From JBDRCC01 sp043822065 [NCBI: archaeon] (GTDB taxonomy: Archaea > Undinarchaeota > CAZHTU01): a stretch of DNA of 64,000 bases. The DNA lies in the NCBI GenBank assembly GCA_043822065.1, contig JBDRCC010000021.1, forward strand, positions 54,691 to 118,690, in the 5' to 3' direction. The translations under genes and the position numbers were made by a program. The stretch's first letter is position 1. Every line of letters starts with the position of its first letter. Below the pieces are notes generated by a model that saw only the letters and a program-made list of their open reading frames with translations, had not been told where the DNA came from and did not search any database. Positions 3,550 to 62,026 of this stretch are shown here, in pieces.

Positions 3550-3820
3550 TTGGTGGCTAGGCGGGGAGATAGTCGTACCCTTTACGCGAAATCGACTTCA
3601 GCGCGGCCGAATGCCCTTTTGAGGCGGATAGGCTTTCTAATCTAGCCGTTTCCAAGCGTCGAAGCCCTGCCCTCAGGGGTGGTGCATCTGGACGAACCGG
3701 GCCAGGCGGGGAACCGTGCAACCCTAATCCTTATGTATTACGCTCTGCGGATCACGGGGTGGAGTTTGGATCGGTATTGGATTAGTTTGCACTAGCGTCG
3801 ATTAAGGGTGCCACCACCTC
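3550..3820 (+). ncRNA. ffs: Signal recognition particle RNA (7S RNA)
   Basis: This GC-rich non-coding stretch of about 270 nt sits between the thiolase and lipoprotein genes. The ends pair (ggtggc 3552-3557 with gccacc 3810-3815), as in archaeal SRP helix 1. Around 3696-3728, gggccaggcgg-ggaa-ccgtgcaaccc fits the helix 8 SRP54-binding signature: a GNAR-type tetraloop closed by CGG/CCG and an asymmetric loop with CCAGG on one side and GCA on the other. A TATA box 25 nt upstream and a T-rich tract just downstream delimit the transcript. It is the scaffold for SRP19/SRP54 in co-translational membrane targeting. A covariance-model search would give exact ends. Confidence 0.8.
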
Positions 3821-3870
3821 AACCTTTTTCTTTTTAAAAAAGAAAAACGTTGGCGAAAAAGAAAACTGGA
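3819..3870 (+). terminator. T-rich terminator with a partial copy of the intergenic repeat
   Basis: cctttttctttttaaaaaag follows the SRP RNA 3' end directly, with T-runs suited to archaeal termination. The segment continues as aaaaacgttggcgaaaaag, which resembles sequence at 53932-53950 next to the best copy of the dispersed repeat. It may therefore be a diverged member. Confidence 0.5.
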
Positions 3871-3873
3871 CAA

Positions 3874-4863
3874 ATGACCAATTCCACTGACAACACACAA
3901 TTAAAGACTTGGGTACCCCTGCTAATATTCTCCATTATGCTTACCTGCGGCTGCACTAGCTATTCAGAGCCAACCAAACCTGGCCAATTCGCAGACCAGG
4001 GCGGCGCTGGCGCATTCAACCTCAGTGGCACTCCTGCAGCATCTTACTGCTATTCTGACGCCGAAGTGGCTGAGCTGAATAACGAGATGCTGGATGTCTT
4101 TAGGGACCTTGTCGAACCGAGACGCTATTATCATGGAATACGGCGGGATGTCGAATACTCACCGGCCCATGGCATAACAATGAACAACGTCCTTGAGATC
4201 CCAGAGGAAGTTTACCTTGAGTACACCTACCTGTACAAGGATTACGCTGTAGTAGATACTCACTACGCACCCGACGGCGTTGAGCGGATGGTCAGCCTAA
4301 AATTCCTGGTGCCAGCGGATGCCGAGACGGAATTCAGCCCGTCCGAAGTGCAGGGCTTTGTCAAGGGGTACATGGAAAAGCGCGCAAGATACTTCAACAC
4401 AGATTTTAGCGAAATAGAATTCGGGAAGCCGGTATACCATGACTGGGACTCCTCCTGGGAAATGGGGATAGCGCGCAAGAAGGACGGCGCCGTCTCAATT
4501 CCAGGCGGCGCCCAATTCACAATATCCAACTATGGCGTAGTCTACCACTTTCTCGCCTCCGAGGATGCCGTAGGGACTATAGTCGCTGTTCCAGACCTTG
4601 AGCTCCCCGCAACCCCCAAAATATCAAAATCCGACGCGGAGCGAATCGCAAAGCTCCAGGACGGCATACCTCAGACACCCATAATCGAACGCGCCGAGAT
4701 GTCATTCAAGACTGTATGGAGCAATGAAACCTGCATAGACTACTGGCTGTTGTGGACCATCGACTTTTCCTGTACAGGCTCTGACGCAAAATACGATAAA
4801 ATAATAATCGACGCGCTTGATGGCTCAGTCGTTGCCAAGACGTTCAAATGCTACGCAACATAG
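3874..4863 (+). CDS. Secreted lipoprotein, hypothetical
   Basis: About 329 residues from ATG 3874; an upstream in-frame TTG at 3850 lies in the terminator tract and is less likely. The N-terminus has a hydrophobic stretch followed by LTCGC, a plausible lipobox, so the mature protein would be lipid-anchored at Cys. The rest is soluble with no recognised domain. The last 90 residues (SDAERIAKL...DKIIIDALDGSVVAKTFKC) resemble a PepSY-like pattern ending in a DxxxGxVV strand, seen in exported regulatory domains; this is tentative. It is preceded by SRP RNA and followed by tRNA-Ser, so it stands alone. Confidence 0.6.
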   Translation: MTNSTDNTQLKTWVPLLIFSIMLTCGCTSYSEPTKPGQFADQGGAGAFNLSGTPAASYCYSDAEVAELNNEMLDVFRDLVEPRRYYHGIRRDVEYSPAHGITMNNVLEIPEEVYLEYTYLYKDYAVVDTHYAPDGVERMVSLKFLVPADAETEFSPSEVQGFVKGYMEKRARYFNTDFSEIEFGKPVYHDWDSSWEMGIARKKDGAVSIPGGAQFTISNYGVVYHFLASEDAVGTIVAVPDLELPATPKISKSDAERIAKLQDGIPQTPIIERAEMSFKTVWSNETCIDYWLLWTIDFSCTGSDAKYDKIIIDALDGSVVAKTFKCYAT

Positions 4864-4884
4864 TCTCCATAGCCCAAAGAAAAA

Positions 4885-4894
4885 ACATATAGAT
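4885..4894 (+). promoter_or_regulatory. TATA box of tRNA-Ser
   Basis: acatatagat is centred 28 nt upstream of the mature tRNA 5' end at 4918. Confidence 0.5.
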
Positions 4895-4917
4895 ACAATC
4901 AGTCTAATCAATGTCAT

Positions 4918-5003
4918 GCGGAGGTGGCAGAACCTGGTTAACGCGCAAGCCTGCTAAGCTTGTGGGCCTTTGGCCCGTTCGAGTTCAAATCTCGACCTCC
5001 GCG
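4918..5003 (+). tRNA. tRNA-Ser(GCU)
   Basis: This is a class II tRNA. The acceptor stem GCGGAGG (4918-4924) pairs with CCTCCGC (4996-5002), with discriminator G5003. The anticodon stem CAAGC/GCTTG encloses the loop CTGCTAA, with anticodon GCT at 4953-4955 reading AGC and AGU. The long variable arm gggcctttggccc is typical of tRNA-Ser, and the T-arm is CGAG-TTCAAAT-CTCG. No CCA is encoded and no intron is present. A T-rich tract at 5009-5020 should terminate transcription. The cognate synthetase SerRS2 is at 60518. Confidence 0.95.
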
Positions 5004-5026
5004 CTCAACCTTTTCTTTTAGAACTA

Positions 5027-6244: not shown

Positions 6245-6355
6245 ATGGGGCCGTATTCAGTTCCTTGGTCAACGTTTCTTGCCTGGGTGGTAGCCCTGGG
6301 AAGCGTAGCCCTTGCAATAGTCTGGGCTAGATGGTACACCCCAGAGGAGATTTAG
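6245..6355 (+). CDS. 36-residue single-helix partner of the SSS symporter
   Basis: A short ORF, MGPYSVPWSTFLAWVV..., stops at TAG 6353-6355 directly against the symporter ATG at 6356. It has one hydrophobic helix (about residues 10-27) and an acidic end (YTPEEI). A TATA box lies 26 nt before its ATG, so it is the first cistron of the transcript. Several sodium:solute symporters are encoded with a tiny membrane subunit just upstream (YhdT with PanF, YjcH with ActP). By analogy this could be an accessory subunit or a translational coupler, but its sequence matches no family I recognise. Confidence 0.6.
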   Translation: MGPYSVPWSTFLAWVVALGSVALAIVWARWYTPEEI

Positions 6356-7789
6356 ATGGAAGAGACCATGATTTATGGCTCAGTCATCTCCGTCTACCTT
6401 CTTTCCCTCATACTCATCGGCTACGTCGCCTCAAAGAGGCACAAGACCTCGGCCGGCTTCTTCCTTGCCGGGAGGAGCATCGGGCCCTGGGTAACCTCAT
6501 TCTCATTCATCGCCGCGTACTTCAGCTCGGTGATTGTCGTCGGCGGGGGCGGCTTCGGGTACAAGTACGGCATGGCGACCCTGTGGATAAGCGCCATGAA
6601 CGTGCTCGTCGGCTGCACCCTTGCCTGGATACTGCTCGGGCCGAGGCTTAGGAAATTCACAACGCGGCTTGACACGATAACCGTCCCTGACTTCATCTCA
6701 AAGAGGTTCGGCGCCCCGTTCGCAAAGAGCTATTCCGCGGTCATCCTGTCCATGTTCCTTATAATCTACTGCATCAGCGTCCTCAAGGGGATGGGGAACA
6801 TCTTCGAGGGGCTGATGGGCATGGACTACAAGACGGGAGTCATAATCTCCGGCCTGATAATCGCGGTCTACGTCGCAATCGGCGGGTACCTTGCAGTCGT
6901 CTGGACCTCCTTCATCCAGGCGTGGATAAAGATAATCGGCTTAATCCTCCTGACACTCGCAACCCTGAAGGCGGTCGGCGGCTTCGAGGCGGCGCACGTG
7001 CAGCTTGCGGCGGTGAACCCGGGCTACGTCTCAACCCCAGGGGTATGGGGATGGGCAGGCCTGATATCATACGCATTCATATTCAGCTTCGGCGCCTGGG
7101 GCATGCCCCAGCTGCTGGTGAGGTTCTACTCGATAAAGGACCTGAAGACCCTGAAGCTCGGCACAGTCCTGGTGAGCGTTGGCGCCCTGATGGCTTTCCT
7201 CCCGTTCTTCAACGGCGCAGTTTCACGGTTACTGCTTCCAGACCTCGCAAACCCGGACCTGGCAATCCCGATGCTTTCCAAGATGGTCCTTTCCCCGTGG
7301 CTGGCGGCAATATTCCTCGCCGCGGTGGTCGCGGCAGGCATGTCCGCGTTCTCCTCAATCCTCATAGTCATCAGCAGCTCCATAGTCAAGGACATCTACC
7401 AGACGAGCATCAACAAGAACCTTGACGAGAAGATTTACCTCCGGTACAGCCGGGTCGTAAGCCTCATAGTTGGAATCATAGCAATCATGGTCGCGCTCAA
7501 CCCGCCGGCGATGATATTGGTCCTCGCTGCGTTCTCCTGGGCTGTCGTCGCCTCAACCTGCCTGTGGCCGATAGTCCTCGGCGCGTGGTGGAAGGGCGCA
7601 ACCCGCTGGGGCGTCACTTCCTCAATGGTCGTAGGCTCGCTGTTCGCGATGTCATGGATGCTTGCAGGGAACCCGTACGGGGTGCACGGCTTCATACCGG
7701 GCGTTGCAGTCGCCCTAATAGTCCTGATAGTCGTCAGCCTGTTCACTGAGAAGCCTTCTGAAAAGATAATAAAGAAGCTCTGGTCCTAA
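6356..7789 (+). CDS. Sodium:solute symporter (SSS family)
   Basis: 477 residues with about 13 membrane helices. The N-terminal GYVASKRHKTSAGFFLAGRSIGPWVTSFSFIAAYFSSVIVVGGGGFGYKYGMATLWI is the conserved SSS start seen in PutP, PanF and MctP relatives. The later GMSAFSSILIVISSSIVKDIY is the conserved TM8 region that carries sodium-site Ser/Thr residues. The substrate cannot be read from sequence; organic acids, amino acids or pantothenate are typical. It follows the 36-residue ORF with no gap, and the aromatic metabolism genes lie next to it on the other side. Confidence 0.88.
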   Translation: MEETMIYGSVISVYLLSLILIGYVASKRHKTSAGFFLAGRSIGPWVTSFSFIAAYFSSVIVVGGGGFGYKYGMATLWISAMNVLVGCTLAWILLGPRLRKFTTRLDTITVPDFISKRFGAPFAKSYSAVILSMFLIIYCISVLKGMGNIFEGLMGMDYKTGVIISGLIIAVYVAIGGYLAVVWTSFIQAWIKIIGLILLTLATLKAVGGFEAAHVQLAAVNPGYVSTPGVWGWAGLISYAFIFSFGAWGMPQLLVRFYSIKDLKTLKLGTVLVSVGALMAFLPFFNGAVSRLLLPDLANPDLAIPMLSKMVLSPWLAAIFLAAVVAAGMSAFSSILIVISSSIVKDIYQTSINKNLDEKIYLRYSRVVSLIVGIIAIMVALNPPAMILVLAAFSWAVVASTCLWPIVLGAWWKGATRWGVTSSMVVGSLFAMSWMLAGNPYGVHGFIPGVAVALIVLIVVSLFTEKPSEKIIKKLWS

Positions 7790-59259: not shown

Positions 59260-60336
59260 ATGGACATCGAAAAAAGGATAGAACTGGTAAAGAAGCTCCC
59301 AACCGAGGAGCTTATAACCGAGGAGGACCTCCGCAGGCTCTTTGAGGAAAAGAAGCACCCTGCGGCATACGACGGGTTCGAGCCGTCCGGCCTTCTCCAC
59401 CTCGGCTCAGGCGTCATGCGGGCGATAAAGCTCAAGGACATGATGGATGCCGGAGTGAATTTCAAGCTCTTCATCGCCGACTGGCATGCATGGGTCAACC
59501 AGAAGTTCGGCGGCGACCTTGAAAAAATTCAGACCGCAGGAAAGTACTTCATGGAGGGCTGGAAGGCGTGCGGCGTTGACATGTCCAAGACCGAAGTCGT
59601 CTGGGCTTCAGACCTTGTCAAGGACCCGGAATACTGGAAGACAGTGCTTGACGTGGCAAGGAAGACCACCCTTAAGCGGATGATTCGCGCCGGGACAATC
59701 ATGGGAAGAAAAGAGGAGGACATGCTCTACACCGGGCAGCTTTTCTACGGGGCAATGCAGGCGACAGACCCATTCTACCTAAAGGTCGACATATGCCAGC
59801 TCGGGATGGACCAGCGCAAGGTCACAATACTATCGCGGGAAATTGCGGAATCCCTCGGCTTCAGGCCGGTTGTCTGCGTGCACCACCACCTCCTCCTTGG
59901 GCTTTCAGGCCCGGTCCGCATGGGCAAGTGCGAGCCAGAGGACGCTGTTGAGAACAAGATGTCAAAATCAGTGGCAGGGAGCTGCATCTACATCCATGAC
60001 TCTGAAGCGGAGATAAAATCAAAAATAAACTCAGCATACTGCCCAGAGAAGGTCATTGACTCCAACCCGGTTGTTGAGCTCTGGAAGTACATAATATTCA
60101 ACAAGTTTGATTCCAGGACGATAAGGCGCCCTGCAAAATTCGGCGGCGACATCGAAGTCCAATCCTATGCAGAGCTTGAGACGAAGTACTCCTCCGGCGG
60201 CCTGCACCCAATGGACCTGAAGTCCGCGACTGCCGAAGCTCTGAACGAGATACTCGAGCCTGTCCGCAAGCACTTCTCCAAGGGCAAGCCGAGCGAGCTG
60301 TACGAGAAGGTCAAAAGCTTCCAGCTCACGCGCTAA
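59260..60336 (+). CDS. tyrS: Tyrosyl-tRNA synthetase
   Basis: 358 residues, archaeal/eukaryotic class Ic. The HIGH-equivalent is PSGLLHLGSG near 43-52, with Tyr-specific YDGFEPSG, QATDPFYLKVDICQLGMDQRKV and ENKMSKSVAGS near 230-240. Length and ordering fit archaeal TyrRS rather than TrpRS. Its stop TAA overlaps the TATA box of the serine leader/serS unit, so that promoter lies inside the tyrS 3' end. Confidence 0.95.
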   Translation: MDIEKRIELVKKLPTEELITEEDLRRLFEEKKHPAAYDGFEPSGLLHLGSGVMRAIKLKDMMDAGVNFKLFIADWHAWVNQKFGGDLEKIQTAGKYFMEGWKACGVDMSKTEVVWASDLVKDPEYWKTVLDVARKTTLKRMIRAGTIMGRKEEDMLYTGQLFYGAMQATDPFYLKVDICQLGMDQRKVTILSREIAESLGFRPVVCVHHHLLLGLSGPVRMGKCEPEDAVENKMSKSVAGSCIYIHDSEAEIKSKINSAYCPEKVIDSNPVVELWKYIIFNKFDSRTIRRPAKFGGDIEVQSYAELETKYSSGGLHPMDLKSATAEALNEILEPVRKHFSKGKPSELYEKVKSFQLTR

Positions 60337-60346
60337 ATATAAATAA
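60335..60346 (+). promoter_or_regulatory. TATA box of the serine-leader/serS transcript
   Basis: aaatataaataa overlaps the tyrS stop and is centred about 28 nt before the leader ATG at 60368. This is the same spacing as at leaderless genes elsewhere in the window. Confidence 0.6.
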
Positions 60347-60367
60347 CATTATCACCATCTCCCTACC

Positions 60368-60400
60368 ATGGCATTCGGGGAATCATCCTCTAGTTCTTGA
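60368..60400 (+). CDS. Candidate serine leader peptide, MAFGESSSSS
   Basis: A 10-codon ORF followed by TGA. Codons 6-10 are all serine (TCA, TCC, TCT, AGT, TCT), using both serine codon boxes, so stalling would sense several tRNA-Ser species, including AGY readers such as the tRNA-Ser(GCU) in this window. A TATA box 28 nt upstream predicts leaderless translation from this ATG. It lies 117 nt upstream of the seryl-tRNA synthetase ATG. This is the classical arrangement of amino-acid leader peptides in attenuation, which I do not know from archaeal aminoacyl-tRNA synthetase genes. Too short for homology evidence. Confidence 0.6.
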   Translation: MAFGESSSSS

Positions 60401-60512
60401 AGACTCATACAGCCCCCGCTATGCCCAACAAAAAACAAGCCGGGCAGCCAGGGGTTTATGAATTCAAGGGCGCCATAAAGATAAATATGCAAAAAACATT
60501 GGGAAGTGTGAT
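60371..60512 (+). promoter_or_regulatory. serS leader RNA with two mutually exclusive hairpins
   Basis: Segment 1, gcattcgggg (60371-60380, inside the leader ORF), can pair with segment 2, ccccgctatgc (60414-60424). Segment 2, cccccgctatgccc (60413-60426), can instead pair with segment 3, gggcagccagggg (60442-60454): tgccc/gggca and cccc/gggg around a GCTA/GCCA internal loop. A third stem, tttatg/cataaa (60455-60460/60474-60479), follows. The serS ribosome-binding site gtgat is at 60508-60512. A ribosome stalled on the Ser codons would cover segment 1 and leave 2 free to pair with 3. I cannot say which form turns expression on. Confidence 0.5.
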
Positions 60513-60517
60513 GAAAC

Positions 60518-62026
60518 ATGAAATTTGAGCTGAAAGGCAGCATGGCCCTGACGAAAAAAATAGAGAAGAAAGTGCTTGAGCCCCTAATCTCTGAGGCGAA
60601 CAAGACCATAATGAAGAAGGGCGCCTCCTCCGGCGGCGGCTCCACTATCGACTCTTTTTCAGTCTCAGGCACCGACCTGAAGCTCGAGATATCCAGCGAC
60701 CGCTACGTCCGCGCCCATGACGGCATGCTCCGCCTGAGGAAGTTCCTTGCGGAAAAAGCCGGAAGGGAGCACAAAATCGGCTTTCGCGGGATTACTATTG
60801 ACGAGTACAAGATAACTTTCGACGTGCCAGCCCCGCCTGAAAAGGAAATCAAGCTCCCGCTGGTAACCAAGATTTCATTCTCCGGTAAGAAGTGCACCGT
60901 CCTCCTGAAAAACATAGACGAGGACTTCCTTGCGAAGAACTACATCGACCGGATAATCAACCTCATCAATGAGAAGGCCCAGCCGGGCTACGGCGGCAAG
61001 ACCGAGCACTGGGAGCTCCTCTGGCAGTCCGGAAAGAAAAACCATATTTGGGACAAGGACCCGACAGCCGAAATGGAAAAGCTCGGCTGGCTGCAGCGGA
61101 CAAAGTCCCGCGGGCAGTGGATATTCGGCCCAGTCCCGACACAGATAATGCGGACGATGGAGCAGATAGTGGTCGACGAGATAATCAAGCCGCTCGGCTT
61201 CAGGGAGATGATTTTCCCGAAGCTCGTCACCTGGGACGTCTGGGCGAAGTCCGGCCATGCGAAGGGCATATACCCGGAAGCCTACTACGTCTGCCCGCCC
61301 AAGACCAGGGACAAGGAGTACTGGGAAGACGTCATAGACTACTTCAAGATAACCGGCGAGGTCGACACCAAGACCATCAAGGAGAAAATCAAGGAGCCGA
61401 TTGGCGGAATGTGCTACGCGCAGTGCCCGCCCTTCTGGCCATACCTCGACGGCAAGACGCTTTCGAAGGACGACCTCCCGCTTAGGGTGTTCGACAGGTC
61501 AGGCCCCTCCTTCCGCTACGAGGGCGGCGGCATCCACGGGATAGAGCGCGTGGACGAGTTCCACAGGGTTGAGCTTGTCTGGATGGGCACCCCGGAGCAG
61601 ACGTCCAAGGTCCACCAGGACATCCACGACAGGTTCCAGGAGATATTCAAGAACATCTTTGACTTCGAGGTCAGGACTGCATGGGTCACGCCATGGTTCC
61701 TTGCGCAGGAGGGCTCGACAAAGCTCGCTGACGAGAAGAAGACTATAGGCACAATCGATTTTGAGGCATACCTGCCCTACCGCGGGACGCGCGAGGACAG
61801 CGAGTGGCTCGAGTTCCAGAACGCATCGAACAACGGCCCGAAATACCCCGTCGCATTCAACGTCAAGGCGCAGGGCAACCCGGAGCTTTGGTCAGGCTGC
61901 GTCGGCGTCGGATTGGAGCGCTGGCTTGCAGTCTTTGCAGCGCAGAAAGGGCTCGACCCGAAGAACTGGCCTGAGCCGTTCAAGAGACGGTTCGGCGGGA
62001 ATGCCAGCGGGTTCAGGTTCCTTTAG
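60518..62026 (+). CDS. serS: Seryl-tRNA synthetase, class 2 (methanogen type)
   Basis: 502 residues, the length of SerRS2 rather than the bacterial-type SerRS. The N-terminal YVRAHDGMLRLRKFLAEKAGREHKIGFRGI segment matches the atypical tRNA-binding domain of methanogen-type SerRS. The catalytic core has the class II motif 2 region FRYEGGGIHGIERVDEFHRVELVW and motif 3 GVGLERWLAVF, plus Cys residues (MCYAQCPPF and WSGCVGVG) that hold the active-site zinc in this type. It charges tRNA-Ser. It has a gtgat ribosome-binding site and a 150-nt leader, unlike most leaderless genes here, and is controlled by the candidate serine leader. Confidence 0.9.
   Translation: MKFELKGSMALTKKIEKKVLEPLISEANKTIMKKGASSGGGSTIDSFSVSGTDLKLEISSDRYVRAHDGMLRLRKFLAEKAGREHKIGFRGITIDEYKITFDVPAPPEKEIKLPLVTKISFSGKKCTVLLKNIDEDFLAKNYIDRIINLINEKAQPGYGGKTEHWELLWQSGKKNHIWDKDPTAEMEKLGWLQRTKSRGQWIFGPVPTQIMRTMEQIVVDEIIKPLGFREMIFPKLVTWDVWAKSGHAKGIYPEAYYVCPPKTRDKEYWEDVIDYFKITGEVDTKTIKEKIKEPIGGMCYAQCPPFWPYLDGKTLSKDDLPLRVFDRSGPSFRYEGGGIHGIERVDEFHRVELVWMGTPEQTSKVHQDIHDRFQEIFKNIFDFEVRTAWVTPWFLAQEGSTKLADEKKTIGTIDFEAYLPYRGTREDSEWLEFQNASNNGPKYPVAFNVKAQGNPELWSGCVGVGLERWLAVFAAQKGLDPKNWPEPFKRRFGGNASGFRFL

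What the first reader, a model, noticed from the sequence alone, without database searches (positions are those of the whole stretch)
60335..60520. Serine leader peptide and switch-like RNA before the archaeal seryl-tRNA synthetase gene
Seen in sequence: a TATA box at 60335-60346; 28 nt later a 10-codon ORF MAFGE followed by five serine codons drawn from both codon boxes; a stop; then segments allowing 1:2 pairing (60371-60380 with 60414-60424) or 2:3 pairing (60413-60426 with 60442-60454); then an SD-led serS at 60518. Known: bacterial amino-acid operons use such leaders for ribosome-mediated attenuation. Inference: scarcity of charged tRNA-Ser stalls the leaderless ribosome on the Ser run, masks segment 1 and favours 2:3. 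I know of no described archaeal aminoacyl-tRNA synthetase gene with a leader peptide. Caveats: no U-run follows 2:3, so control may act on translation rather than termination. A second TATA-like box (60481-60489) could give a shorter serS transcript.
Basis: partly seen in the sequence, partly recalled or inferred. Interest (0 to 1): 0.9.

Follow-up and report, generated by a model that had tools for sequence, protein, structure and literature searches.

The report
Serine-run leader ORF before archaeal serS
An uncultured archaeon has a ten-codon reading frame ending in five serine codons just in front of its seryl-tRNA synthetase gene; it resembles a serine sensor of a bacterial kind, but no relative examined shows it and the proposed RNA switch does not hold up.

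Summary
A TATA box (60334-60344) lies 23 nt before ATG 60368 of MAFGESSSSS* (stop 60398-60400), 117 nt before serS, a type-2 seryl-tRNA synthetase gene. That spacing is usual for this organism's leaderless genes. Five Ser in a row occurs in 5-6 of 100,000 shuffled regions and is the only run of five or more among 708 short ATG ORFs of the window. serS has a strong Shine-Dalgarno that a start at the nearer TATA box would cut off, which favours a long leader. Against it: 0 of 96 other type-2 serS upstream regions have an ATG uORF with three Ser in a row, though all are distant; the nearer TATA box scores higher; the 1:2 / 2:3 switch is not supported, since 2:3 wins in every state folded and the serS start is unaffected; no U-tract follows. 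Best reading: a leaderless Ser-codon sensor acting through ribosome occupancy rather than a switch, 0.45; coincidence, 0.35. If real, a new archaeal variant of bacterial leader-peptide control.

The parts
59260..60336 (+). tyrS, tyrosyl-tRNA synthetase, upstream neighbour
   Evidence: NF006330 1.9e-123
60334..60344 (+). P1, distal TATA box TAAATATAAAT; predicted transcription start at about the ATG at 60368
   Evidence: score 8.6 with a matrix trained on 34 other starts; box end to ATG 23 nt
60368..60400 (+). leaderless mini-ORF MAFGESSSSS* (stop TGA 60398-60400)
   Evidence: sequence; ranks 22nd of 1,879 ATGs for leaderless TATA geometry; no SD (+3.0 kcal/mol)
60383..60397 (+). five serine codons TCA TCC TCT AGT TCT, the presumed sensor; AGT and TCT are the rarest Ser codons in 25 genes of the window (19 and 90 of 13,728 codons)
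   Evidence: -24.4 kcal/mol, z -2.97; region-level 4.5% of shuffles
60478..60488 (+). P2, proximal TATA box AAGATAAATAT; would start transcription near 60511, inside the serS SD
   Evidence: score 9.7; start point inferred from the 21-24 nt spacing
60508..60512 (+). serS Shine-Dalgarno core GTGAT, 5 nt before the ATG
   Evidence: the 18 nt upstream pair with a consensus anti-SD at -9.5 kcal/mol; 2.2% of random window positions as good; GGTGAT-type SDs before several other archaeal serS
60518..62026 (+). serS, type-2 (methanogen-type) seryl-tRNA synthetase
   Evidence: PF18490 5.4e-41; NF002120 623.4 bits over cut-off 611, while TIGR00415 (serS_MJ) at 314.2 bits stays under its cut-off of 489.55

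Best explanation
A serine-responsive leader ORF. Transcription starts at P1 so that the serS mRNA begins at or next to AUG 60368 (inferred from geometry). A ribosome starts leaderless on MAFGE and meets five Ser codons, including the Ser codon that is rarest in the window's genes, directly before the stop (shown in sequence). With charged tRNA-Ser plentiful it finishes and leaves, exposing 117 nt of untranslated leader. With charged tRNA-Ser scarce it stalls at the 5' end. Because I find no U-tract terminator and no coupling to the serS ribosome-binding site, the stalled ribosome would most likely raise serS expression by keeping the nascent mRNA occupied against termination by FttA/aCPSF1 (polarity) or against 5' decay, with serS translated from its own SD. 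The sensor step is inferred from the cognate codon run; the output step is pure inference.
For: Cognate run of five at 5-6e-5 per simulated region. Only run of five or more among 708 short ATG ORFs of the window, and it lies before the cognate synthetase on the right strand. 0 of 1,433 intergenic short ORFs with five Ser in 800 kb of another archaeon. P1-to-ATG gap of 23 nt; in the training set 12 of 34 starts have gaps of 21-24 nt, and 14 of the 21 ATGs that outrank the mini-ORF open ORFs of at least 99 codons (most of these were in the training set). serS has an SD of -9.5 kcal/mol: 6 of 13 leadered or operon genes reach -9.1 or better, 1 of 12 leaderless ones does, so its mRNA probably starts upstream of P2's start point. 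Rare codons are used in some bacterial leaders, not all (passage in PMC1183508).
Against: 0 of 96 other type-2 serS upstream regions have an ATG uORF with three or more Ser in a row. No RNA switch, U-tract or RBS coupling. P2 scores higher than P1. Leaderless-type TATA+ATG occurs by chance in about 6% of such regions. Ser is the commonest long run in short ORFs of the control genome, 7 of 13, though those lie over coding DNA. Leader codon usage scores lower than 98.5% of 10-codon gene segments, as expected of non-coding DNA too. The case was picked from a scan of unknown size.
Confidence: 0.45

Rival explanations
1. Coincidence. serS is transcribed from P2 or by read-through from tyrS; the mini-ORF is non-coding intergenic DNA that happens to read as five Ser codons.
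For: P2 scores 9.7, above P1. TATA boxes at about the P1 score occur in 55% of simulated 181-nt regions and leaderless TATA+ATG pairs in about 6%. Non-coding-like codon use. No parallel in 96 homologous upstream regions.
Against: Ser run 5-6e-5 per region and unique in the window. A transcript starting at about 60511 would lose most of the serS SD (inference); read-through from tyrS would keep it.
Confidence: 0.35
2. P1 is a real promoter and the leader is real, but the mini-ORF is not a Ser sensor: it is a leaderless ribosome-loading uORF, or the hairpin 60397-60467 binds a protein or shields the mRNA.
For: P1 geometry; hairpin z -2.97 starting at the leader stop codon; sORFs in 5' UTRs are common in M. 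mazei (10% of unannotated sORFs, passage in PMC11456600).
Against: Does not explain why the run is serine before serS; region-level hairpin signal is weak (4.5%); no Rfam family matches at gathering score. The stop-to-start distance of 117 nt exceeds the 30-40 nt over which coupling falls off (passage in PMC12548453).
Confidence: 0.15
3. One reading: stalling on the Ser run masks segment 1 and lets 2:3 form, which switches serS on.
For: Segment 1 is inside the leader ORF, so a ribosome does cover it; 1:2 can form in a transcript ending before segment 3.
Against: 1:2 has no equilibrium weight once segment 3 exists; 2:3 forms in all occupancy states folded; SD and AUG accessibility hardly change; no U-tract.
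Confidence: 0.04
4. A frameshifted or small coding gene: the 35-codon ORF 60421-60528, which overlaps the serS start, or its fusion with the mini-ORF.
For: ORF is open and overlaps the serS start.
Against: Coding score at the 1.3rd percentile of gene segments; no Pfam match at E up to 1; 0 of 394 genomes match at E <= 0.01 (which states that an empty answer without a positive control shows nothing); no SD at 60421 (+1.2).
Confidence: 0.01

Closest known systems
Bacterial ribosome-mediated attenuation leaders (trpL, hisL, leuL and others; recalled, trp leader described in passages of PMC1183508)
   Same: Short leader ORF with a run of cognate codons before a gene concerned with that amino acid; hairpin after it
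   Different: Archaeal, leaderless start, before an aminoacyl-tRNA synthetase; no terminator, no working alternative pairing, no conservation seen
T-box riboswitches on aminoacyl-tRNA synthetase genes (recalled; search listings seen)
   Same: Would control an aminoacyl-tRNA synthetase by tRNA charging
   Different: T-boxes bind uncharged tRNA directly; no T-box match here
erm-type leader peptides with stall-dependent mRNA stabilisation (recalled)
   Same: A stalled ribosome near the 5' end could protect the downstream message
   Different: The stall there is drug-induced; here it would be tRNA-Ser scarcity; untested
Archaeal uORFs and leaderless sORFs seen by Ribo-seq (M. mazei, PMC11456600, passages seen)
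   Same: Short ORFs in archaeal 5' UTRs, and leaderless sORFs
   Different: The passages seen describe no cognate-codon sensor

Membership tests
[quoted passage not shown]
   MAFGESSSSS before serS; 5-6e-5 by chance
Ribosome-mediated transcription attenuator | Mutually exclusive RNA structures chosen by ribosome position | tested here: not met
   1:2 has no weight; 2:3 forms in all states folded, at equilibrium
Ribosome-mediated transcription attenuator | Terminator before the structural gene | tested here: not met
   No U-run after the 2:3 hairpin. The one plus-strand terminator-like consensus hit, 60377-60390, lies inside the leader ORF; 2 hits in the 501-base region against 0.9 in shuffles (bacterial consensus)
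Ribosome-mediated transcription attenuator | Conserved in related genomes | tested here: inconclusive
   0 of 96 distant type-2 serS regions; no close relative found
Translational attenuator (RBS sequestration) | Leader structure that hides the downstream SD or AUG and is opened by a stalled ribosome | tested here: not met
   SD 0.43-0.45 and AUG 0.63-0.67 unpaired in every state folded
Leaderless archaeal transcription unit | TATA box about 21-24 nt before the ATG, no SD | tested here: met
   23 nt, score 8.6, SD energy +3.0
T-box riboswitch | Match to the T-box covariance model | tested here: not met
   No T-box hit at gathering threshold over the window or at E up to 5 in 60300-60560
Any leader-peptide regulator | Leader translated and expression responds to the amino acid | not testable with these tools
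   Needs RNA-seq, Ribo-seq and starvation experiments

The most novel reading that the evidence does not exclude
An archaeal aminoacyl-tRNA synthetase gene controlled by a leaderless cognate-codon leader peptide, working without terminator or RBS switch, through occupancy of the 5' end of the message by a stalled ribosome.
Probability: 0.4. Interest if true: 0.85.

Novelty: new variant of a known kind. Interest (0 to 1): 0.55.

Why it matters
My literature searches (open-access library, capped listings seen, passages of five papers) showed no archaeal gene under cognate-codon leader-peptide control. If real, it would show that archaea, many of whose mRNAs are leaderless, can sense tRNA charging by translating a mini-ORF at the very 5' end, and it would give a direct test of transcription-translation coupling and FttA polarity as a regulatory output.

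Tried and rejected
Close relatives: one genome-contig scan with SerRS gave two loci; viral contigs gave none. Whole-genome searches gave 102 SerRS matches down to E 1.1e-73 among 394 archaeal genomes (counted by hand from its list), then 6 of 34 and 5 of 156 genomes in two other phyla at E <= 1e-60. None exceeded about 60% identity over full length. The six-genome phylum nearest by RadA (62-64%) gave no SerRS match at E <= 1e-20 (without a positive control). IleRS did not place the window nearer (47-48% at best). In a second 394-genome sample all 35 genomes with a SerRS match at E <= 1e-110 were already seen.

Leader search set: of the 102 matches I used 91. G015 had no start; G329, G218, G183, G235, G131, G269, G071, G287, G303 and G336 were not fetched. 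One search tried six loci and added five; L117 had no start; L112-L115 were repeats or fragments and were not added. With GTG and TTG starts, 4 of 96 regions have a uORF with three Ser in a row (L048, L050, L058, L062), none with more.

Rejected: Rfam element (one search gave only sub-threshold lncRNA and snoRNA models), small gene at 60421-60528, pairing of the Ser run with the serS SD, plasmid copy of the region (no match), initiator composition as a discriminator (leave-one-out scores uninformative).

Errors of mine: the coding scores were computed one base off; one search is the corrected run and the only one used. In some searches the cut-off 8.59 lies just above the mini-ORF's unrounded score, so 0.058 is slightly low. 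The pair sums printed are not normalised.

Full report
What is there. tyrS ends at 60336 and serS starts at 60518. serS encodes a type-2 seryl-tRNA synthetase with the tRNA_bind_4 domain. The 181-nt gap, with the last bases of tyrS, holds a TATA box at 60334-60344, a ten-codon ORF at 60368-60400 reading MAFGESSSSS*, a 71-nt imperfect hairpin at 60397-60467, a second TATA box at 60478-60488, and an SD 5 nt before serS.

Promoter evidence. I trained an 11-nt TATA matrix on the 60 nt before 34 other starts of the window. In 12 of the 34 the box ends 21-24 nt before the start, so leaderless mRNAs look common in this organism. Of all 1,879 ATGs on both strands, the mini-ORF ranks 22nd for this geometry; 14 of the 21 above it open ORFs of at least 99 codons, most of them training starts. 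Among the 21 is also ATG 60511, 22 nt after the second box, an out-of-frame five-codon ORF overlapping the serS start. Geometry alone is not proof: simulated intergenic DNA gives such a pair in about 6% of 181-nt stretches, and a TATA box of this score somewhere in 55%.

Which promoter serves serS? The 18 nt before serS pair with a consensus anti-SD at -9.5 kcal/mol; 2.2% of random window positions do as well. Of 13 leadered or operon genes 6 reach -9.1 or better and the rest are -5.9 or weaker; of 12 leaderless genes one reaches -11.0, one -8.4, and ten are -5.1 or weaker. So the SD points towards, but does not prove, a leadered serS mRNA. A transcript from the second box would begin near 60511, inside the SD. 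This favours the first box or tyrS read-through. The 16S 3' end of this organism is not known; the anti-SD is the recalled consensus.

The Ser run. In 200,000 simulated regions each, five or more Ser in any short ATG ORF occurred at 6e-5 (local composition) and 5e-5 (pooled intergenic composition). It is the only run of five or more of any residue in 708 ATG ORFs of 5-30 codons in the window, and in 60 intergenic ATG ORFs of 3-40 codons, where three others have runs of three. In 800 kb of a genome of the Altiarchaeota group, 3 of 1,433 intergenic short ATG ORFs (two nested) have a run of five or more, none of Ser; over coding DNA Ser runs do occur, 7 of the 13 runs found in 10,025 short ATG ORFs. 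These figures do not correct for the size of the scan that picked the case. The run uses TCT twice and AGT once, 90 and 19 of 13,728 codons in 25 genes of the window; rare codons fit both a sensor and non-coding DNA.

RNA structure. Hairpin 60397-60467 is stable for its composition (z -2.97, 3 of 200 shuffles), but the best window of the whole gap is only at 4.5% of shuffles and the full leader is unremarkable (z -1.72, 11 of 200). 1:2 pairing alone is ordinary (26 of 200). Folding 60366-60600 free, with 60360-60400 blocked (Ser run), or with 60370-60412 blocked (stop), gave 2:3 every time, 1:2 with no weight, and nearly the same SD and AUG accessibility. So at equilibrium the switch has neither a competing state nor an output; co-transcriptional folding was not modelled. 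No U-run follows. A bacterial-terminator-like consensus hit lies inside the leader ORF at 60377-60390, at a rate near that of shuffles.

Comparative evidence. No close relative was reachable. In that phylum 20 of 29 genomes match SerRS at E <= 0.001, 13 of them over most of the length at 55-60% identity and four at 45-46%; larger genomes that I take for methanogens match at 54-58%. In 96 type-2 serS upstream regions (91, five more), 323 short ATG uORFs include none with three or more Ser in a row. A Ser leader is therefore not a general feature of type-2 serS; the window's own lineage remains untested. The two other synthetase genes of the window, ileS and tyrS, have no ATG ORF with a run of three or more of any residue in their upstream gaps.

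Interpretation. A cognate run at about 1 in 20,000, on the right strand, in the frame of a leaderless-type start, before an SD-led synthetase gene, is hard to dismiss; the lack of parallels and of any output structure is hard to ignore. I put 0.45 on a Ser-charging sensor whose output is ribosome occupancy. FttA-linked polarity in archaea is mentioned in PMC12548453 (passages) and aCPSF1/FttA termination in PMC8116511 (passages); applying either here is inference. Coincidence gets 0.35.

Novelty. The listings of searches (several capped at 10-15 rows) showed no archaeal aminoacyl-tRNA synthetase or biosynthetic gene with a cognate leader peptide. I saw passages of five papers: PMC11456600, PMC1183508, PMC12548453, PMC8116511 and PMC12482152. 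The library is open-access only, and the Haloferax ribosome-profiling paper was not held, so absence in print is not established.

Noticed in passing
60318-60328 and 60526-60536: Inverted repeat of 11 nt (91%) between the end of tyrS and the start of serS; in a read-through transcript it could fold over the serS start. It may be chance.
   Followed up: no
60329-60345 and 60471-60487: The two TATA regions before serS resemble each other over 17 nt (82%), as if a promoter element were duplicated or both bound a common factor.
   Followed up: no
60511-60528: Out-of-frame ATG ORF MKHEI* overlapping the serS start, 22 nt after the second TATA box; this and the mini-ORF are both leaderless-type ATGs in front of serS.
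   Followed up: partly
whole window: The archaeon looks deep-branching: best RadA match 64%, in a six-genome phylum with no SerRS match at E <= 1e-20, while its SerRS is nearest to another phylum, which would fit lateral transfer of serS.
   Followed up: partly
6245-6355: A 36-codon ORF (MGPYSVPWSTFLAWVVALGSVALAI...) with a strong leaderless-type TATA box just before the symporter-like gene at 6356, probably an overlooked small membrane protein (both labels by eye).
   Followed up: no
3550-5004: Archaeal SRP RNA (3550-3817) and tRNA-Ser with anticodon GCT (4918-5004), which should read the AGY codons, lie in the same window.
   Followed up: no
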